Shown: one piece after another, positions 31,716 to 42,096 of the stretch
Numbering within the stretch: the stretch's first letter is position 1
How the letters are laid out: the number at the start of each line of letters is the position of its first letter
Assembly (NCBI GenBank): GCA_030263375.1
Contig: SZOV01000009.1
Span: forward strand, 1-56,211
Direction of reading: 5' to 3'
DNA: 56,211 nt
Source of the DNA: Deltaproteobacteria bacterium PRO3
GTDB lineage: Bacteria > UBA10199 > DSSB01
Translations under genes and position numbers: made by a program
The notes under the pieces: model-generated
Database searches by the model: none
What the model saw: the letters and a program-made list of their open reading frames with translations, nothing else
Told to the model about the DNA's origin: nothing

Positions 31716-31767
31716 AAAAATGGTGGAGACGAGCGGGATCGAACCGCCGACCTCCTGAATGCCATTC
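31716..31767. repeat. Left attachment repeat (attL), tRNA-Ala 3' fragment
   Basis: Identical over 52 bases to 42,016-42,067. It covers AAAAA plus the last 47 bases of tRNA-Ala as seen on the minus strand, up to the anticodon loop. Sequence diverges immediately after GCCATTC. It cannot fold as a tRNA. Confidence 0.95.
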
Positions 31768-32026
31768 CCCCTGGGAATTTTTCCTTCATTTGGGTGCTTC
31801 TGCTAACTAATTGAAATAACTAACTAATATAGATCTCGTTAATGATGATTTTTGTACAAGAATGGTCATTATGAGGTCAATTTGGGGTCGTTATGGACTC
31901 ATTCGTGGGAGGATTGTGGGATAAAATTGCAGTACAAGGTATAAGAAAATCGCTAAATGTACTGTAAAAGGGCGGCCCGAGCACTCCCTTTCCAATAGGT
32001 GGAGAATCCTATAGAGTTGAGCCGGT
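31768..32026. other. AT-rich left edge of the island without an intact gene
   Basis: No intact gene is seen. Around 31,890-31,975 a frame reads SFVGGLWDK and then runs to a TAA. It resembles the LVGVLWNR near the end of the integrase at the right edge (20 of 25 bases alike at 31,903-31,927 approximately). It may be a remnant of an older integrase end. Confidence 0.4.
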
Positions 32027-32365
32027 ATGTTGAATAAGAACGCCAATCCTCAAATCATACGACTTCGGGAATTATTTGAAAAAAATATTTCCACCCGACA
32101 GGCTTTATCCAAAATCAAAGAACAGTTCGCTCCTTCAGCAACGAAAATAATTTTGGATTTCTCCGATATCGATTTTGTTTCTCGTTCCTTCTCCCACGAG
32201 CTAATCCGCTTTTCTAAATCTTGGGAGAAGCAAATTGAATTCAAAAATTTAAACCCCACCATTCAAGCTTTATTCTCTAAAGTTCAGGCCGCCAAACCAA
32301 CTTCTCGATCGGCTTCGGCCCCGATCAAAATTACTTCATTTGAAGAATCAGCAACGATTTTTTGA
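32027..32365 (+). CDS. STAS-like protein (DUF4325 type)
   Basis: A 112-residue protein, AT-rich in codons. Its core ATKIILDFSDIDFVSRSFSH matches the STAS-like DUF4325 pattern, where a beta strand is followed by F-x-SRSF and a helix. Such domains are usually signalling or antagonist modules that bind a partner protein. The C-terminal 25 residues are Ser/Thr-rich and probably disordered. The likely partner is the HEPN-motif gene 136 bases downstream. Family assignment is from motif memory. Confidence 0.68.
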   Translation: MLNKNANPQIIRLRELFEKNISTRQALSKIKEQFAPSATKIILDFSDIDFVSRSFSHELIRFSKSWEKQIEFKNLNPTIQALFSKVQAAKPTSRSASAPIKITSFEESATIF

Positions 32366-32401
32366 GGCATTTTCCGCATCATTAGGAGCCCGATGTTAAA
32401 A

Positions 32402-32438
32402 TGCACTAAAAAGTGCGTTTTATGCAATTTTTAGTGCA
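32402..32438. terminator. Hairpin between the STAS-like and HEPN-motif genes
   Basis: TGCACTAAAAA (32,402-32,412) and TTTTTAGTGCA (32,428-32,438) are perfect 11-base inverted arms. A smaller nested hairpin GCACT-AAAA-AGTGC ends in GTTTT. It could be a terminator or attenuator that sets the ratio of the two genes, or an operator. Confidence 0.55.
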
Positions 32439-32501
32439 CATCGAAAGTTGTTACCAATTTTCAAGACGACTAGGATAACGCTAAGTGCAAGGGATTTTTT
32501 C

Positions 32502-32948
32502 ATGGAAACTCAAGATTCACAGACACAGGAAAATCAAAAAATATTTGATAAAGCCAAACAATGCTTGCCGGATTTAAAAAATCTTTTTTCGGAAGTTTCC
32601 TCCGAGTGGGGTTATGAGGATGCTATCTATCGCTTTTATCATTACTCCTTTAAAGTTTACGGCATCCAAGCCATGACCGAAAAAATTGTGGAAGGCCTTC
32701 AAAGGCTTGCCCCTCATCGCCCATTGAATTCTGATTTTCAAAAGATCATCAAAGAGGGAACGGGTCATACTTTCGCTTTGTCCCATAATAGGAATTGGTT
32801 GGCCCATACTCGCCCAATGCTTGAGGCCTTTTTTCACGCCCGCTACATGCTGGAAATGATCTGTAAGTACACCGAAGAGTTAGAGGAACCGCCGGACTTG
32901 CTTCCTTCCGGTTGGGCTGCGGTTTTGCATTTGTATAATCTAAGATAA
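32502..32948 (+). CDS. Helical protein with a HEPN-like RNxxxH motif
   Basis: A 148-residue, mostly helical protein with AT-rich codons. It contains SHNRNWLAHTRPM, with Arg97 and His102 in the R-x4-H spacing and an Asn after the Arg, the pattern of HEPN ribonuclease active sites. The motif precedes a long helix, as in HEPN folds. AAGGGA lies about eight bases before the ATG at 32,502. Paired with the STAS-like gene it could be a toxin-like effector; this is inference from one motif and the context. Confidence 0.55.
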   Translation: METQDSQTQENQKIFDKAKQCLPDLKNLFSEVSSEWGYEDAIYRFYHYSFKVYGIQAMTEKIVEGLQRLAPHRPLNSDFQKIIKEGTGHTFALSHNRNWLAHTRPMLEAFFHARYMLEMICKYTEELEEPPDLLPSGWAAVLHLYNLR

Positions 32949-33023
32949 AAACACGCTTTAAATTCGGCCATTTATCATCCAATAAGAAGTTGAAATTTGT
33001 TAACAATTTCAAATTATTAGCAA

Positions 33024-33090
33024 AATAAACTAGAAATGGTACAGCATGAAAAACGAGAAATAGTACGACACAATAAACTAGTAATGGTAC
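33024..33090. repeat. Three 24-base-period direct repeats
   Basis: Units start at 33,024, 33,048 and 33,072. Units one and three read AATAAACTAGAAATGGTAC and AATAAACTAGTAATGGTAC; unit two is diverged but keeps the GAGAAATAGTAC end. They lie just before a start codon. They could be iterons, regulator sites, or the multiple terminal repeats of a lost IS21-like or Mu-like transposon. Confidence 0.8.
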
Positions 33091-33096
33091 GGGCCC

Positions 33097-33645
33097 ATGT
33101 TTCTCCATTGCACCAAAAAGCTGCTCGAACAGCTCAACATGTCGAAGGCCGATCTTGATGACAGTTCGCCTGTTCAACGAATTTTTTCATGGCATGCGCA
33201 TATTGTTTCTATCGCCCGCGGAAAAACGCTGGTCGCAATAAACGATCAGACTTTTTACGCGCTCATCATGCCGCAGTTAAAAAAGAAAAATTTGTTGAAT
33301 TTCGCCTCCGAATTTTATTCGGCCTTATCTGCCAGCCTAAAAAGTGAAGGTTTCAACGGCTCATCGATTGAATTTCTATTCGGCGGGAATATTTCCTACA
33401 CAAAGTCCTATAGCCGCCAAATTTTGGGAATTATCAACGACGCCGTTAAGCACGTACGGTATCATGTTGAAGACCGAGGCGGTTGGGAGCACACCGATAT
33501 CGTTGAGCTTACCAAGAGAATCAATCGTATCCCGTGGCTCGCCGGCACCCGGGATTGCATCTTCGCGATTCAGAAGATTGCCGAGGATCTTAAAATTCTA
33601 GGAAAGGCAGGGGATATTTCCCTTGAACGGGAAAAAGCCTTCTAA
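33097..33645 (+). CDS. DUF6933-like protein
   Basis: A 182-residue protein beginning MFLHCTKKLLEQLNMSKADL. This start resembles the DUF6933 family, whose members begin with a similar CTKKLL segment; the assignment is from memory. Function is unknown. No signal or membrane span is seen. The ATG follows the three 24-base repeats by six bases, so those repeats may control it. GC content is lower than in host genes. Confidence 0.6.
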   Translation: MFLHCTKKLLEQLNMSKADLDDSSPVQRIFSWHAHIVSIARGKTLVAINDQTFYALIMPQLKKKNLLNFASEFYSALSASLKSEGFNGSSIEFLFGGNISYTKSYSRQILGIINDAVKHVRYHVEDRGGWEHTDIVELTKRINRIPWLAGTRDCIFAIQKIAEDLKILGKAGDISLEREKAF

Positions 33646-33688
33646 ACACTTTATCCTTTGTAGAAGGAGCCCCCCAGAGAAGAGGACT

Positions 33689-34891
33689 ATGATCGCAAAG
33701 AAGCCGAAAAAACGTCCCGGCGAATTGGCCACCCAATACAATTCCATTTTGGGGGACATCTCCAGCGTCATCAATGAAGCCAGGAGATCTGCCGCCCGAT
33801 CAGTCAATTGCATCATGACAGCTGCTTATTGGCTGATCGGCAGGCGTATTGTGGAATCCGAACAAAAGGGGGAGAGCCGCGCAGGGTATGGGGAAGAGCT
33901 GCTGGAGCGGTTATCCGCCGATCTCAGTCAGAGTCATGGACGTGGCTTCTCCCGGCAAAACCTCCAGCAAATGAGGCAGTTTTACCTATGTTACCCGCTG
34001 GAACAAATTCGCCAGACACCGTCTGGCGAATTCGGCCCTCCTTCCAATGTAATCATTCGCCAGACAGAGTCTGGCATTTTGCAGACACCGTCTGCAGAAT
34101 CGATCCTTTCCAGTATTTCCATAAAATTTCCGCTCCCCTGGTCGGCCTACGTTCGCTTACTGGGGGTGAAAAACGAATCAGCCCGAAAGTTTTACGAGGC
34201 CGAAGCCCTGCGCGGCGGCTGGTCGGTGCGGCAACTCGACCGGCAGATCAATTCCCAGTTCTATGAACGCACCGCCCTGTCGAAGAACAAGGCCGCCATG
34301 TTGAGTAAGGGGGAAAAGGCTTCGCCTGGGGACCATGTTCTGCCGGAAGAGGAAATCAAGGACCCATTCATGCTGGAATTCCTCGGGCTCAAGGACGAAT
34401 ATTCGGAAACGGATCTGGAAGAGGCGTTGATCCGCCACTTGGAAGCCTTCCTTTTAGAATTGGGCGGCGATTTCTGTTTCATCGGCAGGCAGAGACGCTT
34501 GCGGATCGATGACGAGTGGTATCGTGTGGACCTTTTGTTTTTCCACCGTCGCTTACGATGCCTGGTGATCATTGATCTCAAGATCGGCAAGTTTACCCAT
34601 GCCGATGCCGGGCAAATGCACCTCTATCTCAACTATGCGAGGGAACATTGGGTGCGCGACGGTGAGAATCCGCCCGTCGGGTTGATTCTCTGCGCCCAGA
34701 AAGGCGATGATCTCGCCAAATACGCGTTGGAAGGACTGCCCAATAAGGTCATGGCTTCGGAGTACCGAACAACCCTGCCCGATGAAAAAAGACTTGTCGC
34801 CGAGATTGAGCGGACCCGGGCGGTTCTGGAAGGCAGAAAACCTCCTCCCCTTACAGGTCGAAACTCCGTGAAGAAAAAAGGGAAGCAATGA
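33689..34891 (+). CDS. DUF1016 (YhcG-type) PD-(D/E)XK nuclease
   Basis: A 400-residue protein. The N-terminal DUF1016 DNA-binding-like part (about residues 15-190) shows SAARSVNCIMTAAYWLIGRR and GFSRQNLQQMRQFY. The C-terminal nuclease (about 235-370) has RIDDEWYRVDLLFFHRRLRC with the acidic residue and IDLKIGKF as the DxK motif. YhcG-like proteins occur often in defence islands and near restriction systems, though their target is not settled. AGAGGA precedes the ATG at 33,689. The middle contains three DNA palindromes encoding QTPSG-like repeats. Confidence 0.85.
   Translation: MIAKKPKKRPGELATQYNSILGDISSVINEARRSAARSVNCIMTAAYWLIGRRIVESEQKGESRAGYGEELLERLSADLSQSHGRGFSRQNLQQMRQFYLCYPLEQIRQTPSGEFGPPSNVIIRQTESGILQTPSAESILSSISIKFPLPWSAYVRLLGVKNESARKFYEAEALRGGWSVRQLDRQINSQFYERTALSKNKAAMLSKGEKASPGDHVLPEEEIKDPFMLEFLGLKDEYSETDLEEALIRHLEAFLLELGGDFCFIGRQRRLRIDDEWYRVDLLFFHRRLRCLVIIDLKIGKFTHADAGQMHLYLNYAREHWVRDGENPPVGLILCAQKGDDLAKYALEGLPNKVMASEYRTTLPDEKRLVAEIERTRAVLEGRKPPPLTGRNSVKKKGKQ
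34006..34096. repeat. Three CAGAC-NNN-GTCTG palindromes inside the DUF1016 gene
   Basis: Perfect inverted arms occur at 34,006-34,032 (12-base arms), 34,059-34,075 (7-base arms) and 34,080-34,096 (7-base arms), each with a three-base loop. They encode QTPSG, QTESG and QTPSA in a flexible linker of the protein. Confidence 0.85.
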
Positions 34892-34904
34892 CTTTCTGGC
34901 CTTT

Positions 34905-34931
34905 GGAAAGGGGCCTTTGCGGCCCCTTTCC
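34905..34931 (+). terminator. Hairpin after the DUF1016 gene
   Basis: GGAAAGGGGCC and GGCCCCTTTCC are perfect 11-base arms around TTTGC, 14 bases after the stop codon. The T-run is weak, so it may end transcription poorly or stabilise the mRNA 3' end. Confidence 0.65.
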
Positions 34932-35012
34932 ATTCATACTTTGACAAGGTCCCCAAATTAGGAAAAAATATAGTGTTTCCCCCGGGTAAGGAGCGTTTCT
35001 GAAGGGGAACCC

Positions 35013-35261
35013 ATGGTCCGAGGCAATCAAATCGCGCGCCAATGGGCGGTCATCAAGACATTCGGCGGCCGTTCCAAAGGGATTATCATCGCGGATCTCT
35101 CCAGCAATTTAAAAATAAATTCTTCTCGTATCATTTACGCGGATCTTAATTGTTTTCAGAAAGCTGGAATGCAATTCGATTCAGCTAATTCATTTCAGTG
35201 GTTGGTAACTTTTTTTTCTGCTGCGTCAATTTTTTTAATTAGCTGGCTTATATGCCGCTGA
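35013..35261 (+). pseudogene. Truncated WYL-type transcriptional regulator
   Basis: The first 55 residues, starting MVRGNQIARQWAVIKTF and containing SSRIIYADLNCFQKAGM, look like the N-terminal helix-turn-helix of WYL-domain regulators. Homology stops near residue 56. The rest reads into an AT-rich hydrophobic tail and ends at 82 residues, whereas intact WYL regulators exceed 300. The remaining gene is not found downstream. WYL proteins such as BrxR and CapW control other defence islands, so this may be the relic of a local repressor. Confidence 0.6.
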
Positions 35262-35322
35262 CAAATAGGGAAATTAAGGAATCATTGTCAAATCGTAAGT
35301 TTCATTGGGAGGAACACAAAAG

Positions 35323-36135
35323 TTGGATTACCCCGAATCAGAAATGCCCCTAGCGACCGACCCCGTAAGCCGGGACAACTTTGATGCTCATTGGCTTGAA
35401 GCTGGTGTATCCATCACTTACCCCGACCTCCGGCATCATCCCATGAGAGAGATCAGCGGAAGCCGACCTCGAATTCGAGATTCGCTTTCCCGAGCCATTG
35501 TTGATCACCACGTACATCGCCAGAGAGTCGCGGACCGACTCCAGGCCCTCGGTCATGTGGGCGCGGCAGCATTCTTTCGAACAGAGTTACCTCGCGATGA
35601 CCGTACCCGTAAGGGCAATTTCGGAGAGGTCGTTGCATCTGAGCACTTAATCCAGCGTTACGGCTACGCAATGCCAGTTTTCAAGCTACGCTACCGCGAC
35701 AGCAATCTGGCTATGAGGGGAGAGGACATCGTTGCATTCAAGATCGATAATCAGCAACGGATCACGTGCGTTATCATCGGGGAGGCCAAGACAGTCACTA
35801 CCTACAATGCTGACACGGTACATCGTGCGCACGAGCGATTGCATAAGGCTTATCACCCTCGCCCGATGACGCTTGGGATGCTCGCCGAGATTCTCTACAT
35901 GAATGGGAGCTCGGCCCTCGCTTCCCAAATAGACGATATCGCCATACACCTCGCCAAGGATGACTTTCCCCGGGAGAACTGGATATTCCTGATTTGCCAG
36001 GACTGCCCGGTTGAGCCATTCGCGTGCCTGAATGGCAATGGCAACATCATACCTGACCTTCATTGCGTTAATCTGTCCCTCTCGGACTTGACGAATTTTG
36101 TGAACCACCTATTTGACCATCCCGTTCTGGAGTAG
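35323..36135 (+). CDS. hamA: HamA-like nuclease (DUF1837), Hachiman defence
   Basis: A 270-residue protein with a PD-(D/E)XK-type core: Glu102 in GNFGEVVASEHL, Asp135 in MRGEDIVAF, and Glu154/Lys156 in IIGEAKTV. This order and the size fit DUF1837, the HamA (also AbpA) component of Hachiman-type defence. HamA cuts DNA nonspecifically once released by its helicase partner. TTG 35,323 is chosen with GGGAGG ten bases upstream; a later ATG at 35,344 is possible. The partner starts nine bases after the stop. Confidence 0.82.
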   Translation: MDYPESEMPLATDPVSRDNFDAHWLEAGVSITYPDLRHHPMREISGSRPRIRDSLSRAIVDHHVHRQRVADRLQALGHVGAAAFFRTELPRDDRTRKGNFGEVVASEHLIQRYGYAMPVFKLRYRDSNLAMRGEDIVAFKIDNQQRITCVIIGEAKTVTTYNADTVHRAHERLHKAYHPRPMTLGMLAEILYMNGSSALASQIDDIAIHLAKDDFPRENWIFLICQDCPVEPFACLNGNGNIIPDLHCVNLSLSDLTNFVNHLFDHPVLE

Positions 36136-36144
36136 CACTATCTA

Positions 36145-39100
36145 ATGCCGATTCGCGACCTACAGCAATTGAGCCAACAAATGGAAACACTCCTGCGCGA
36201 CGGCACGCGACGCAACCTCCACGCCCAAGCGCACGCGAGAGCGATTCTTAAACAACTCGGAACGCCGGAACGTGAGTGGCCAGCTTTTAGCCCCGTACTC
36301 GATGAACGCCTCATGTATTTCGCAAATGCTTCGATGGTTATGGCCTTGGACCTTGTTGACGCGCCGATGTACCAAGACCTCGCAACGGAGTTACTAACCC
36401 AGGGGGCCGAGGCTATCGAGTTTCTATGTGTTGTCGGGCGGTTCAAAGCATGCATACCGGATGAGCTGCTCAAGGCAGCGACGGCCTACCACATCGCTGG
36501 CCATCACGCCCGCTCCTACGTCCTGATGCACACGCTGACAACTAGCAATGACTTTAAGCCGGATTCATTCATACAGGCAATCATTGCCCTTGTGGCTCGT
36601 GATCTCACGCGTGCTAGAGAAATCACGCTGGCGATCTTTAATCAACCTCAGTTCGTAGATGCCAATGTTGCAGAGGCCCTCGCAGGTGGTGCGACTACGG
36701 ATGACAATGCAATCGCGGATCTTGGACGACGCAGCCTGACTGAAGCGATTTCGTGGTTTTTGGAATTTCTTAAAGTCGGTTCAATGCCTTTTCGTGATAC
36801 CGCCACCAAACAGTGCCGCGCCGTCGCAGCGCTTGGGCGGGAGGCTCGCCATGTTGATCTCTGGTGGTGGGGAAAGGTTCTGGAACGTTTTTTCCGCGAA
36901 CTTGGCGACTCAAGCTTTTGGAGCTGCATTGGCGATATTGGTCCGCGCTTCCCTTCGGGCGCCCCAATCCAGCGCTACATCGAAAGCCTGTTACTGAAGC
37001 ACCCCGCCACCATATCGCTGTGGCCATCCCAGCAGAGCGCCATAGCCATGATCAAGCGAGCAGATGCTCCAAGCTTCTGCGTGCGAATGCCCACCAGCGC
37101 GGGGAAGACTCGCATAGCCGAACTCTGCATCGTGCGCGCCATATTGGACAGTCTCAACAGTCCTAACGCTAAGTGTGTGTATATCGCTCCGTTCCGCTCA
37201 CTAGCAGCTGAAATCGAGCGCACCCTCACCAGTGGACTACAACCATTGGGAGTTCGCGTTTCCGAGGTCTATGGCGGATTTGATATGACGGCCAATGACG
37301 AACGGCTGATCCAGGATACCCAGGTACTGATTGCTACGCCGGAAAAGCTGGATGCGGTTCTGCGAATAGCGCCGGAGCTGCTCTCGGACATCCGCCTCGT
37401 GATCTTCGACGAGGGCCACCTCGCAGGCGACACTTCTTCGCGCGGCCTACGCGCTGAGTTCCTGATTAACCGCCTCTTGTGGCGCCTGGGGCGTCAGCAA
37501 TGCCGCCACGTCTTCCTGTCCGCAGTTCTCCCTAACCCGGAAGACTTCGCGCGATGGATCGGCGGCGGCGCCGACCATCTTGTTTCATCGACATGGCGTC
37601 CGTCGCGGCTGCTCGTAGGGCAGTGTTTGTGGAATGGCACACGTGTTCGGCTCGATTATACCCATTCCAGTGATACGCCGTTGGATCATGAAACCTTTGT
37701 GCCGCAGTTTGTGGGCCGGCGAGAGGTCCGGGGCATCCAAGGAGTAGGCGGACGTCGGAGGCCGTTTCCCGCCAATTGGCAGGAAGCCTATGCATCGGCT
37801 GCTATACATCTGACTTCCATCGGAACGACTTTAGCCTTTGTTCCTCAAGCCCGACACGTAGAGTCGACGGCCAAGACTATTCTTGATGCATTGCAACTTT
37901 CACATGCCCTGGCTCGGTCCGAGGGTGCGACGTTGCACTTTCCTTCTCCCGATCCCGTGAGTGCGCTTATGCAGGATTGCCTGACTGCAATTCGCGATGA
38001 GCTTGGCCCCGATTCAGTAATTTCATCGTTCATCCGGGCCGGCATTGCCATTCACCACGGCAACCTTCCTTCTCGAGTCAGGCTGGCAATCGAGCGGCTC
38101 GTTCGAGATCGACAGCTCGCCCTCATCGTAGCGACAACGACGCTCGGGCAGGGAGTTAACCTGCCGATCCGGACAGTCCTAGTGCGAGGCGTCCAACAGG
38201 ACCAGCACCACCAGATTGACAGATTGGGATTCTGGAATATCGCCGGGCGAGCGGGGCGCGCCCTCCACGAGAACGAAGGTCACGTGCTCTTCTTCTTCGA
38301 CGAAACGGCACCAACCCATCAGTTGCGGAGCCGCCGAGCTGCAATCCGCGAATTGATCCAGCGGACAAGCGTGGAGGCAGTAATTGGGGTGCTTCACCGC
38401 GCGCTCTCTTTCCTGCGAAAACTCTGGCACAGCACAACGCCGAATATCCCATTTGAAACATTGTGTCTTCGCATAGCAGAAGACGACTTCACTTGGGCTC
38501 CCGAGGATAAGCGCCAAAGCCTCGCCTCACTTTTCGGCCTGGTGGATCAGAATCTGCTCGCTATGGCCGTGGAAGCAGTCTATACGCCCGAGCAGCCAGA
38601 TCGGCTCCAGGAGGTCCTGCGCGAATCGCTACTCTTCTGCCAGCTGGAGACTCGCCCGATCGATGGCATCACCGCTCCGGCAGCTATTAATATTATGAGT
38701 GCGCGCTTGAGGTCCATCTACCGTCGTTTCCCCCAGGAAGATCGCCGGGCAAAATTCTACAAAATGGGGTTCGACTTGGACGACTGCTTGACCGTGGAAA
38801 AAAATCGGAACCAGATTATGGATATCCTCAGGAACGTTGCTGATTGGGACAGCGGGACGGAAGATACCCGGCTCGATACTCTCCTCTCTTTGGCAGCACT
38901 TGCCTTGCCGCTCAACACGATGCGCGAGGCGACAGACCTGGACCCTCTGGTACTGCTGCCAGCCATCAAGGGCTGGCTCAGAGGACAAAGCTGCATCGAA
39001 ATCATCGCCGCCGGACAGGCTGACGATATTTCGTCCGATCCTGGCGAACTGTCGCGTATCATAGAGCGGGTCTGCGTCTATGGACTCGCGTGGGTCATGA

Positions 39101-39711
39101 ATGGAATCATTACTTTTAGCCGTCCCGAGTTTGAAAACCACGGCATCCCCTTCCCGGAGGCGGCTTCTCATTTTCCGGCCATGTTCAAACTAGGAGTGCC
39201 TTCTCCACTCGCTTCAGCTTTTGCTGGCTATCTGCAACTTGATCGAAGCCTGGCTATTGAGGCTGCTGCGAAGTGCCCATATAGTATCACAGAAATCGAC
39301 CGAGCCATTGCCTGGCTGCATGCGACCGATGCAGCCAGCCTTCAGGAGCAGGGTATGTCGGAAGCTGCTGCCACTAGGGTCGTCCGGCTCCGTAGAACGG
39401 GAATCGACCCCCTCGCCCAACTGAATACGGAGGCCACTGATACGCGCCGAGTGATTGTGAATGGCAATCGATTGGACGACGAAACGGCCGCTGGAGATGC
39501 AGTTTTGTGGCTACCGCGCGCAAGCGCCGGGCCCGAGTGGCTCGACCTTGCGCGTCCTGACGGAAAGCTACTCGGCACGTATCGCTTTCAGCAACAGCCT
39601 GTCCCTGAATGGCTGTCTCGAACTTCGAAGGTTGTCTCGCGGCTTACGGACATCTCGCCTCATTCCAAAGGGGCTGTTGTAACCGTTGAGAGCCGTCGAC
39701 TCGGTACGTGA
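36145..39711 (+). CDS. hamB: HamB-like SF2 helicase, Hachiman defence
   Basis: A 1188-residue Ski2-like superfamily 2 helicase. An N-terminal helical region of about 300 residues precedes motif I PTSAGKT (316-322), motif II DEGH (422-425), and motif VI in WNIAGRAGRALHE (AGRAGRA at 700-706). The C-terminal third is helical and may serve as a regulatory or DNA-sensing part. HamB is thought to hold HamA inactive until it meets damaged or invading DNA. It is translated directly after hamA, with GGAG before the ATG. Length is larger than many HamB proteins. Confidence 0.83.
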   Translation: MPIRDLQQLSQQMETLLRDGTRRNLHAQAHARAILKQLGTPEREWPAFSPVLDERLMYFANASMVMALDLVDAPMYQDLATELLTQGAEAIEFLCVVGRFKACIPDELLKAATAYHIAGHHARSYVLMHTLTTSNDFKPDSFIQAIIALVARDLTRAREITLAIFNQPQFVDANVAEALAGGATTDDNAIADLGRRSLTEAISWFLEFLKVGSMPFRDTATKQCRAVAALGREARHVDLWWWGKVLERFFRELGDSSFWSCIGDIGPRFPSGAPIQRYIESLLLKHPATISLWPSQQSAIAMIKRADAPSFCVRMPTSAGKTRIAELCIVRAILDSLNSPNAKCVYIAPFRSLAAEIERTLTSGLQPLGVRVSEVYGGFDMTANDERLIQDTQVLIATPEKLDAVLRIAPELLSDIRLVIFDEGHLAGDTSSRGLRAEFLINRLLWRLGRQQCRHVFLSAVLPNPEDFARWIGGGADHLVSSTWRPSRLLVGQCLWNGTRVRLDYTHSSDTPLDHETFVPQFVGRREVRGIQGVGGRRRPFPANWQEAYASAAIHLTSIGTTLAFVPQARHVESTAKTILDALQLSHALARSEGATLHFPSPDPVSALMQDCLTAIRDELGPDSVISSFIRAGIAIHHGNLPSRVRLAIERLVRDRQLALIVATTTLGQGVNLPIRTVLVRGVQQDQHHQIDRLGFWNIAGRAGRALHENEGHVLFFFDETAPTHQLRSRRAAIRELIQRTSVEAVIGVLHRALSFLRKLWHSTTPNIPFETLCLRIAEDDFTWAPEDKRQSLASLFGLVDQNLLAMAVEAVYTPEQPDRLQEVLRESLLFCQLETRPIDGITAPAAINIMSARLRSIYRRFPQEDRRAKFYKMGFDLDDCLTVEKNRNQIMDILRNVADWDSGTEDTRLDTLLSLAALALPLNTMREATDLDPLVLLPAIKGWLRGQSCIEIIAAGQADDISSDPGELSRIIERVCVYGLAWVMNGIITFSRPEFENHGIPFPEAASHFPAMFKLGVPSPLASAFAGYLQLDRSLAIEAAAKCPYSITEIDRAIAWLHATDAASLQEQGMSEAAATRVVRLRRTGIDPLAQLNTEATDTRRVIVNGNRLDDETAAGDAVLWLPRASAGPEWLDLARPDGKLLGTYRFQQQPVPEWLSRTSKVVSRLTDISPHSKGAVVTVESRRLGT

Positions 39712-40341
39712 CAATTTCGCCTGTGTATTTTGCGACGAGTAACCGCACTCCACGGCGATTTGGCTGTCTGGCGGCATTCAACCGGCGGAGTTTCATTCGT
39801 TACCTCTTTGGTTCCCGCCTTCAATCAAAGGGCTCCCCCAGATTACGGCTTTCTTTTGGAGCCGGGATCGACCGATTTTCGAAATCCAAGGTATGATTCT
39901 CCTCTTCCAGGCCCCAAGAAATTTGAATCACGTGACCTCAAGCACTTCGCAGCAACCCACGAAAATTTAAAATTCCAGCGTAGAATGGGCGACTTTTTAA
40001 CTTTCCCTCCCTGCCATTGTTTTTGCAATTTCCGGCCCAATCCTTGCTTAAGAGACAGATCATGTCTCCTAAGACTCCCCCCATAATCCTAGAAAAATCG
40101 TTTCGTGGTTTCATTCCCCTCCGTCGAGGAGATGAACCCACTCAGTCTATTTGCGAGGTCATGGGCTCCGCCCATACCCATAAATGCCTACACACCGGAC
40201 GCAATCCGGTGTTTTGCAGAATAATACATGAAATCAACTGCTTAAGGCGCCGCTCTGGGGAGGCGCTTTGAATATCAGGAGCGGCGCTTTTCGCTAAGAT
40301 ATTCAAATCATTTGCCTTTCGGAGCGGCGCTGGGGTGCAGG
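39712..40341. other. 630-base gap with nested inverted repeats
   Basis: No convincing gene is seen. At 40,192-40,212 ACACCGGA and TCCGGTGT form an 8-base hairpin. At 40,247-40,330 GCGCCGCTC (40,247) faces GAGCGGCGC (40,279 and again 40,322), and interleaved TTTGAATATC (40,267) faces GATATTCAAA (40,298). The dense block lies just before the RHH gene and could be its operator, an oriT or excision-related site. Confidence 0.6.
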
Positions 40342-40782
40342 ATGTACGAGAAGCTTACAATTCGAATTCGAAAAATTGACTACGAAATTTTGCAAGTAGA
40401 GGCCGCAAAATCGGGCCTTTCGAAGGCGGAGTTGGTTCGACGATTACTGGAAAATTTTCAGCTGCCCTCTCAGAAATTCGCAGGCGAGGATTTGAATAAA
40501 TTCTCCGAATGTAAAGCCCAGGAGGCATTGAAATCCACGCATCTCCTCATTCAAGAGAACAACCTTCTTCTCCGAAAAATTGCCCGTTACACCAATACCC
40601 AAATCGTGATCGAGACCGATGAGCAAATGAATCAAAAATTCGGGCAGGATTTTAAGAAAAATGTTTTGCAATACGCTGCTTCATCACTCAACCTCCTTGA
40701 CCAAGGACGCCCTTTATGGCTTCCTGCAAGCACCAACCTTTCCCGAAAGGAGGTGCCCACGCCAAATCCTTCCCGCGAATGA
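40342..40782 (+). CDS. Ribbon-helix-helix protein with helical tail
   Basis: A 146-residue protein. The first 45 residues, YEKLTIRIRKIDYEILQVEA and SKAELVRRLLENF, look like a ribbon-helix-helix DNA-binding domain. A helical region (residues 60-120) may form a coiled coil. This shape fits MobC-like relaxosome accessory proteins or antitoxin-type repressors; no relaxase or toxin is adjacent. The ATG at 40,342 is chosen because the RHH strand begins there. Inverted repeats just upstream could be its binding sites. Confidence 0.62.
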   Translation: MYEKLTIRIRKIDYEILQVEAAKSGLSKAELVRRLLENFQLPSQKFAGEDLNKFSECKAQEALKSTHLLIQENNLLLRKIARYTNTQIVIETDEQMNQKFGQDFKKNVLQYAASSLNLLDQGRPLWLPASTNLSRKEVPTPNPSRE

Positions 40783-40809
40783 GACATGCGACCCTGCACA
40801 GGAGGTGCT

Positions 40810-42006
40810 ATGCAGGTAAATGTCTATCTTCGGGACTACAAAACGAAACAAGGAGAAAAGCGGTACTATCTGGTCGTCCGCCAAAATTGACGGCGCGACT
40901 GCTTTGTGAATCTTGGTCCGATCCGCAGGCGAAAGGCGGAGGAACGTAAGAACCTCATCCTCAAAGAGCTCCTTAACGGGACCTTCGAGGATACTCCCGC
41001 CGCCCGGTTATACTTCAGCGAATTTTGCGACAAGTTCATCAGCAAATTCGCGCAAGGCTCCCGGGCGCCGGCGACGGTGAGGCAATACGAATACTGCCTT
41101 GCGCAAGCCAAGGCCCGGTTTCGCGGGCTACGCTTGGACCAGATCCAACGGGAAGACATCGAAGTATTCTTGAGCGAGCTGCCGATTCAAAATCGCACCA
41201 AGAATATCTTCTTGAACGCCCTGCGGATGGTCTTTCGCAAGGCCCGCGAATGGCGCTATCTGAAAACCTCTCCCGCCGATGGAATTCGGCCTTTCAAGGA
41301 ATCCAAGGTCGGGAATCGTTCCTTGACCCTGAAGGAATTGGGTCAAGTCCTGGATGCCGCCAAGCCCTGGACCCGATCACTCATCAAGGTGATGGTCTAT
41401 ACCGGCATGCGACCGGGCGAAGTCACCCAGTTCAAGTTCGAAGACATCGATTGGGAGACCCGCCAGATTCGCATCGTGTCCGACAAAGTCCGCCAAACCA
41501 AAAATCGCAAGACTCGGGTTGTCCCCATGTCCGACGATCTTTGGGAGGAGCTGAGGTTCCTGCAGGAAAATTACCCCGTCATGCATTACGAGGGGAGCTC
41601 CAAGGAAAGCATCCTGCCAAGAACTCCAGCCCAGCGGGCCTACGCCTTCTGCCACACCGACGGCCGGCCGATCCGATGCATCCGCTTAAGCCTGAAACGA
41701 CTCTTTAAAAGACTCGGCATTGAAGGAGTGATGCCTCACGGTCTGCGCAAGACCTTCTGCATCTTGCTGGCGCGCAATAGAGTCCATCCTAAAGTGGCCC
41801 AGGAGCTCCTGGGTCATTCGCGAGTGCAACTCACGATGGATATCTATACCGAGGTCAGCGATGATCAGAAAACCGTCGCCGTGGCGTCCTTGCCGACGTG
41901 CCGAGAGTTGGCGATGCAGATTTCCAAGTCGTGGAAGGGAAGAAATTCTAAACTTGTGGGAGTATTGTGGAATAGAAGCTCCGCCGCCAGCGGAGCAAAA
42001 TCCTAA
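40810..42006 (+). pseudogene. Tyrosine integrase with in-frame TGA near the start
   Basis: The site-specific recombinase of the island. A strong AGGAGG at 40,800-40,805 and ATG 40,810 open a frame reading MQVNVYLRDYKTKQGEKRYY, then VVRQN, and TGA at 40,888-40,890. The same frame continues through RRDCFVNLGPIRRRKAEER to 42,006. The downstream part keeps the core-binding domain and all catalytic features: Arg in TGMRPGEV, HGLRKTFC, GHSRVQLTMDIYTE with the Tyr. A GTG at 40,906 could restart translation (366 aa) but has no ribosome site and would lose the arm-type DNA-binding end. Confidence 0.85.
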
Positions 42007-42015
42007 CTACTTGAA

Positions 42016-42067
42016 AAAAATGGTGGAGACGAGCGGGATCGAACCGCCGACCTCCTGAATGCCATTC
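42016..42067. repeat. Right attachment repeat (attR) inside tRNA-Ala
   Basis: Identical to 31,716-31,767. Here the repeat continues into an intact tRNA-Ala, so this is the side where the element restored the gene. Confidence 0.95.
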
Positions 42068-42096
42068 AGGCGCTCTCCCAGCTGAGCTACGTCCCC
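42021..42096 (-). tRNA. tRNA-Ala (GGC anticodon)
   Basis: A 76-base tRNA gene with encoded CCA end. Read on the minus strand it begins GGGGACGTAGCTCAGCTGGG, has a D arm AGCTCAGCTGGGAGAGC, an anticodon stem CCTGA/TCAGG around the loop ATGGCAT (anticodon GGC), and a T arm with GGTTCGATCC. Its 3' half was used as the integration site of the adjacent island. Confidence 0.96.

What the first reader, a model, noticed from the sequence alone, without database searches (positions are those of the whole stretch)
35323..39711. Hachiman-like hamA-hamB pair with an unusually large helicase
A DUF1837-type nuclease with E...D...ExK residues is followed nine bases later by an SF2 Ski2-like helicase with intact motifs I, II and VI. 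This is the layout of Hachiman and AbpAB. At 1188 residues the helicase is long, and its last third matches nothing I can name, so it may be a separate subtype.
Basis: partly seen in the sequence, partly recalled or inferred. Interest (0 to 1): 0.7.

Follow-up and report, generated by a model that had tools for sequence, protein, structure and literature searches.

The report
Ordinary Hachiman defence pair on mobile element
This is an intact copy of Hachiman, a known two-gene bacterial anti-virus system in which a helicase checks DNA integrity and unleashes a DNA-cutting partner; the helicase is normal in size for its family, and the pair was carried in on a small mobile element inserted next to a tRNA gene.

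Summary
hamA (35323-36135, TTG start) is followed nine bases later by hamB (36145-39711, 1188 aa), both intact. HamA matches Pfam HamA/DUF1837 and PADLOC HamA, and its predicted fold's best PDB match is E. coli HamA (8vx9_A). E102, D135, E154 and K156 are invariant in all 12 homologues aligned. HamB matches PADLOC HamB1 (1.3e-175), and its predicted fold matches solved E. coli HamB end to end (E about 1e-44, TM about 0.8).

HamB proteins are normally this long: the solved one is 1174 aa and full-length relatives here run 1035-1199 aa. The 'unmatched' last third is the usual HamB C-terminal helical region plus a barrel; only the last ~150 residues are too diverged to align by sequence. Every HamB relative whose upstream DNA was available has HamA beside it or fused to it. 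It is not AbpAB.

New context: the pair is cargo of a ~10.3-kb integrative element (31716-42067) bounded by an exact 52-bp repeat of the tRNA-Ala 3' half, with a tyrosine integrase. HamA was found in 1 of 46 genomes searched in the phylum. Verdict: new member of a known kind; low interest.

The parts
35323..36135 (+). hamA: HamA/DUF1837 effector nuclease, 270 aa, TTG start, not fused to another domain
   Evidence: PF08878 E=1.9e-10; PADLOC HamA 1e-34; AF2 model (pLDDT 84.9) best PDB match 8vx9_A HamA, E=1.4e-11, TM 0.71/0.73
35626..35790 (+). HamA catalytic residues E102 (35626), D135 (35725), E154-A155-K156 (35782-35790): canonical D-GExK motif intact
   Evidence: invariant in 12 HamA sequences; E154/K156 align with E138/K140 of E. 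coli HamA
36145..39711 (+). hamB: Ski2-like SF2 helicase HamB, 1188 aa (N-terminal helical bundle 1-~283, RecA1 ~284-490, RecA2 ~491-735, winged-helix/C-terminal helical region ~740-1095, C-terminal beta barrel ~1100-1187)
   Evidence: PADLOC HamB1 1.3e-175; 8vx9_B phmmer 8.8e-74; AF2 model full-length match to 8vxa/8vx9/8vxy HamB, E 1e-42 to 1e-44; domain boundaries approximate, by analogy with 8vx9
37087..37110 (+). HamB motif I (Walker A) MPTSAGKT
   Evidence: P316-T322 conserved in 13 HamB sequences
37408..37419 (+). HamB motif II DEGH (D422)
   Evidence: invariant; taken to correspond to D431 of E. coli HamB, whose mutation ablates defence
38236..38262 (+). HamB motif VI NIAGRAGRA
   Evidence: N698, G701-R705 invariant
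31716..31767 (.). attL-like copy: 52-bp exact duplicate of the tRNA-Ala 3' half, left boundary of the carrier element
   Evidence: direct repeat D1, 100% over 52 nt; identity confirmed
42016..42067 (.). attR-like copy inside the intact tRNA-Ala, right boundary of the element
   Evidence: direct repeat D1
42021..42096 (-). tRNA-Ala (GGC), integration target
   Evidence: ARAGORN; the tRNA-Ala/fpg pairing is conserved in G003, G001 and G004
40906..42006 (+). tyrosine integrase of the carrier element, 366 aa
   Evidence: PF00589 8.4e-29; phrog_1 integrase 5.1e-61; closest relatives in the phylum also lie beside tRNA genes
40312..40782 (+). ribbon-helix-helix (CopG/NikA-like) protein beside the integrase, likely element regulator or mobilisation accessory
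   Evidence: RHH_1 4.5e-4 and NikA-like 4.7e-4, weak
33097..33645 (+). DUF6933 gene (PADLOC candidate PDC-S63), further cargo
   Evidence: PF22016 3.4e-36; PDC-S63 3.1e-15
33686..34891 (+). DUF1016/YhcG PD-(D/E)xK nuclease (PADLOC candidate PDC-S02), further cargo; start chosen at the first ATG of the frame
   Evidence: PF06250 2.6e-57 and PF17761 9e-43; PDC-S02 2.6e-139
35013..35261 (+). remnant of a WYL-type regulator (HTH part only) upstream of hamA
   Evidence: 38% identity, E=2e-7, to the N-terminus of a 324-aa WYL-like regulator

Best explanation
An intact, canonical (unfused) Hachiman anti-phage system, carried as cargo on a ~10.3-kb integrase-driven element inserted at tRNA-Ala. HamA and HamB form a heterodimer. 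HamB, an ATP-dependent DNA helicase with a 3'-overhang preference, holds HamA inactive while scanning intact DNA. When it loads on damaged or replication-intermediate DNA produced by phage, ATP-driven movement of HamB activates HamA. HamA's D-GExK nuclease then degrades phage and host DNA, giving abortive infection. Shown here: family membership, intact catalytic residues, predicted fold, gene linkage and the carrier element. Inferred from the E. coli ECOR31 system (PMC12278908): complex formation, sensing, activation and cell killing. Not shown for this copy: expression or activity.
For: HamA and HamB profile matches; sequence match to solved HamA/HamB; predicted folds whose top PDB matches are 8vx9_A for HamA and 8vxa/8vx9/8vxy for HamB over the full length; catalytic residues invariant; HamA directly upstream of HamB in 22 of 22 relatives with upstream DNA and separate genes, and fused in Nostoc; main groupings shared by HamA and HamB trees, with the window next to the Phycisphaerae pair in both; integrase plus 52-bp att repeat; mechanism of the family from PMC12278908.
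Against: HamB is only about 15-24% identical to its non-Phycisphaerae relatives outside the helicase core, so details of DNA sensing may differ. No expression or activity data. The start codon is TTG. The upstream WYL-like regulator is truncated, so regulation may be altered.
Confidence: 0.95

Rival explanations
1. A distinct Hachiman subtype: the last ~150 residues of HamB are a clade-specific DNA-sensing module that gives the window/Phycisphaerae lineage a different trigger.
For: Residues 1021-1188 barely score against an HMM of other HamB C-termini (10 bits, best shuffle 5.3), and profile-profile comparison with three other HamB clades finds nothing. C-termini do vary in the family: Streptomyces HamBs end in a HIRAN domain. 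The clade is a deep, separate branch.
Against: The AF2 model gives a C-terminal beta barrel in the same place as the OB-like barrel reported for E. coli HamB, and Foldseek aligns the whole chain to solved HamB. pLDDT of that barrel is only ~40-73, so identity of the barrels is not proven. Sequence divergence alone is not a new subtype.
Confidence: 0.1
2. An AbpAB-type system rather than classical Hachiman.
For: Same two-gene nuclease-helicase layout; AbpA's C-terminal part is HamA-like (PMC12278908).
Against: AbpA is 538 aa with an N-terminal extra nuclease and AbpB is 729 aa; the window HamA is 270 aa with an intact D-GExK. AbpA and AbpB match different PADLOC models (PDLC00153/PDLC00180) from the window (PDLC00159/PDLC00192). 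AbpAB is the longest branch in both trees.
Confidence: 0.02
3. A decaying or silent copy: coding frames are open but the system is no longer expressed or used.
For: Truncated WYL-like regulator just upstream; TTG start for hamA.
Against: Both long frames are open, all catalytic residues are kept, and a ribosome-binding-like sequence precedes the TTG. The island has not visibly lost its integrase or att sites.
Confidence: 0.08

Closest known systems
Hachiman HamAB of E. coli ECOR31 (PDB 8VX9/8VXA/8VXC/8VXY; PMC12278908)
   Same: Unfused HamA nuclease of ~260 aa followed by HamB of ~1175 aa; same catalytic residues; full-length predicted-fold match of both proteins; same order and tight spacing.
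   Different: HamB ~22% identical in the structural alignment, better in the helicase core; last ~150 residues not alignable by sequence; genes separated by 9 nt (the ECOR31-like pair L027 overlaps by 17 nt).
Hachiman pair in a Phycisphaerae MAG (L002, JAGLWJ010000275.1)
   Same: HamB 53% identity over residues 1-1186 with almost the same length (1185 aa); HamA 61-63% identity; same order, 3-nt gap.
   Different: Sits directly after type I restriction genes rather than on an integrase element.
AbpAB of E. coli K-12 (b2628/b2627, CP4-57)
   Same: HamA-like domain plus Ski2-like helicase, adjacent.
   Different: AbpA has an extra N-terminal nuclease domain and lacks HamA catalytic residues (PMC12278908); AbpB is 729 aa and matches other HamB models.
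HamMAB protease-HamA Hachiman (PMC12799240)
   Same: HamB sensor with a HamA-domain partner.
   Different: There HamA is fused to a protease and usually lacks the D-GExK motif; the window HamA is unfused and keeps it.

Membership tests
Hachiman (HamAB) | HamA of the DUF1837/PF08878 family | tested here: met
   PF08878 41.4 bits over cut-off 25; PADLOC HamA 1e-34
Hachiman (HamAB) | Intact HamA D-GExK nuclease motif | tested here: met
   D135, E154, K156 invariant in 12 HamAs, aligned with E138/K140 of ECOR31
Hachiman (HamAB) | HamB Ski2-like helicase of the HamB profile family with motifs I, II (DEGH) and VI intact | tested here: met
   PADLOC HamB1 1.3e-175; motifs
Hachiman (HamAB) | HamB-specific N-terminal helical bundle (absent from other Ski2 helicases) | tested here: met
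   residues 1-283: 123 bits against a HamB HMM, shuffles below 3; model all-helical over 1-285
Hachiman (HamAB) | C-terminal OB-like barrel | tested here: inconclusive
   a beta barrel is predicted at 1100-1187 and the full chain aligns with solved HamB, but its confidence is low and its sequence does not align
Hachiman (HamAB) | hamA immediately upstream of hamB on the same strand | tested here: met
   9-nt gap; same in relatives
Hachiman (HamAB) | HamA-HamB complex; DNA-damage-triggered DNA degradation; phage defence | not testable with these tools
   known for ECOR31 (PMC12278908), inferred here
AbpAB | AbpA with N-terminal Cap4-like nuclease fused to a catalytically dead HamA domain | tested here: not met
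   window HamA is 270 aa, unfused, active site intact
AbpAB | AbpB-type ~730-aa helicase | tested here: not met
   1188 aa; best model PDLC00192, while AbpB's is PDLC00180
   relatives 1035-1199 aa; solved HamB 1174 aa
   79.7 bits against HamB C-terminal HMM; full-length fold match; only residues ~1021-1188 inconclusive by sequence
tRNA-integrating genomic element | Tyrosine integrase beside a tRNA, direct repeat of the tRNA 3' end at both ends, site without the integrase in a relative | tested here: met
   integrase, 52-bp repeat, same-genus G003 has tRNA-Ala beside fpg and no integrase in the ~1.2 kb held beyond it

The most novel reading that the evidence does not exclude
The C-terminal domain of HamB is a swappable DNA-structure sensor (OB-like barrel in E. 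coli, HIRAN in Streptomyces, a barrel of unrelated sequence in the window/Phycisphaerae clade), so this clade detects a different DNA lesion or phage replication intermediate from characterised Hachiman.
Probability: 0.1. Interest if true: 0.4.

Novelty: new member of a known kind. Interest (0 to 1): 0.13.

Why it matters
It extends Hachiman to one genome of a sparsely sampled phylum (1 of 46 genomes) and shows it arriving as cargo of a small tRNA-Ala element together with two candidate defence genes. It defines, with one Phycisphaerae pair, a deep HamAB branch useful for comparing HamB C-terminal domains. It does not change what is known about Hachiman.

Tried and rejected
Close-relative scans with HamB alone found one locus in genome contigs and none in viral contigs; an alignment query then found 13 viral-contig loci. 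The phage collection gave one partial hit. The idea that the window's C-terminus is a HIRAN domain like that of Streptomyces HamB was tested and not supported: no Pfam HIRAN match even at E up to 5 and no profile-profile match. The idea of a SAVED-HamA fusion in Manganitrophus (annotation 'SAVED domain-containing protein') was dropped: that protein is 252 aa, an ordinary HamA-sized protein next to HamB. Pfam did not recognise the small ORF upstream of hamA; a genome search showed it is a WYL-like regulator fragment. Weak HamB hits in other genomes of the phylum (E about 1e-4 to 1e-5, ~100-aa stretches) look like ordinary DEAD-box helicases, not HamB. A Foldseek search of viral structures was started but not collected, as the PDB result was decisive.
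Full report
OBSERVATION. A GGGAGG sequence lies about ten bases before the TTG. The first protein passes the curated Pfam cut-off for HamA, formerly DUF1837 (41.4 bits, cut-off 25), and matches PADLOC HamA at 1e-34. The second matches PADLOC HamB at 1.3e-175 over residues 10-1022 and a second HamB model over residues 5-1078. Among solved structures the best match of HamB is HamB of E. coli ECOR31 (8vx9_B, 8.8e-74), and the only significant matches of HamA are HamA chains of the same system.

ACTIVE SITES. In an alignment of 12 HamA proteins the residues E102, D135, E154 and K156 are invariant. E154 and K156 align with E138 and K140 of E. coli HamA, whose double mutation ablates defence (PMC12278908). 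In 13 HamB proteins motif I (PTSAGKT), motif II (DEGH, D422) and motif VI (GRAGR) are conserved. D422 lies in the DEGH motif that holds D431 of E. coli HamB, also required for defence.

LENGTH. The claim that the helicase is unusually large does not hold. HamB lengths in relatives with separate genes are 1111-1199 aa in twelve cellular or plasmid loci and 1035-1172 aa in ten viral-contig loci, leaving out L048, which is cut at its 5' end. The solved protein is 1174 aa.

LAST THIRD. An HMM made from the C-terminal thirds of other HamB proteins (window and L002 left out) scores the window at 79.7 bits, while 200 shuffles stay below 4 bits. Residues 1021-1188 alone score only 10 bits (best shuffle 5.3), and profile-profile comparison of the last ~144 residues with three other HamB clades finds nothing. 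An AlphaFold2 model made with 13 sequences (mean pLDDT 78, pTM 0.74) shows an all-helical N-terminus, two RecA domains, a long C-terminal helical region and a final six-stranded barrel (1100-1187, low confidence). This is the domain order published for E. coli HamB: NAH, RecA1, RecA2, WH*, CAH, OB-like barrel. Foldseek's first three matches in the PDB are HamB chains (E 1e-44 to 6e-42, TM 0.77-0.80, 1217-1263 alignment columns); the next are Hel308 and polymerase theta helicases at about 1e-21 to 1e-20. The HamA model (pLDDT 84.9) matches only the two HamA chains significantly.

RELATIVES AND LINKAGE. The closest pair is in a Phycisphaerae MAG (L002): HamB 53% identical over residues 1-1186, HamA 61-63%, same order with a 3-nt gap, behind type I restriction genes. 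All twelve cellular or plasmid HamB relatives with separate genes, and all ten viral-contig relatives with upstream sequence, have HamA directly upstream; in Nostoc the two are fused. Trees of HamA and of HamB recover the same main groups, with window plus L002 as a separate deep branch in both (100/100 in each). AbpAB of E. coli K-12 differs in every tested respect.

CARRIER ELEMENT. A 52-bp exact direct repeat occurs at 31716-31767 and 42016-42067 (confirmed); the right copy covers the 3' half of tRNA-Ala(GGC) 42021-42096. A tyrosine integrase (40906-42006) ends beside the tRNA. Between the repeats GC is 51.6%, against 62.2% and 63.8% outside. tRNA-Ala beside fpg is conserved in three genomes of the family. 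In the same-genus genome G003 no integrase appears in the ~1.2 kb held beyond the tRNA, and in G004 the same tRNA carries a different integrase, so this looks like a recurrent integration site. HamA was found only in this genome among 46 of the phylum, and the others hold no full-length HamB match. The element also carries DUF1016/YhcG nuclease and DUF6933 genes, which PADLOC lists as candidate defence genes, and a fragment of a WYL-like regulator directly upstream of hamA.

MECHANISM. From the E. coli work (PMC12278908; [quoted passage not shown] The catalytic residues and the domains needed for that are present here, so the same mechanism is the most likely; it is inferred, not shown, for this copy.

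CONCLUSION. A new member of a known kind on a small tRNA-targeted element. What remains open is the role of the fast-diverging HamB C-terminal barrel; in Streptomyces the corresponding end of the protein is a recognisable HIRAN domain.

Noticed in passing
window 31716-42067: Whole ~10.3-kb integrative element with exact 52-bp att repeats at tRNA-Ala(GGC), tyrosine integrase and three sets of defence-type cargo genes (Hachiman, DUF1016, DUF6933).
   Followed up: yes
window 35013-35261 (+): 82-aa ORF whose first 54 residues are 38% identical (E=2e-7) to the HTH of a 324-aa WYL-like regulator: apparently a truncated defence-island regulator just upstream of hamA.
   Followed up: partly
L019 2806-6348 and L029 3146-6745 (Streptomyces plasmids): HamB proteins end in a HIRAN domain (above Pfam cut-off), a domain known elsewhere for DNA-end binding; a library search for Hachiman with HIRAN found no relevant paper.
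   Followed up: partly
L024 1885-6114 (Nostoc plasmid): HamA and HamB are fused into one 1409-aa protein.
   Followed up: no
window 34007-34096: Palindromic 21-bp repeats inside the DUF1016 gene, encoding QTPSGE-like repeats within the DUF1016 N-terminal domain.
   Followed up: no
window 33021-33090: Three ~22-nt direct repeats at 24-bp spacing just upstream of the DUF6933 gene, possibly an operator array.
   Followed up: no
L034 92-1243 (G004); L060, L061, L062: A different integrase occupies the same tRNA-Ala site in a related genome, and close relatives of the window integrase lie beside tRNA-Thr and tRNA-Gly in other genomes of the phylum.
   Followed up: partly
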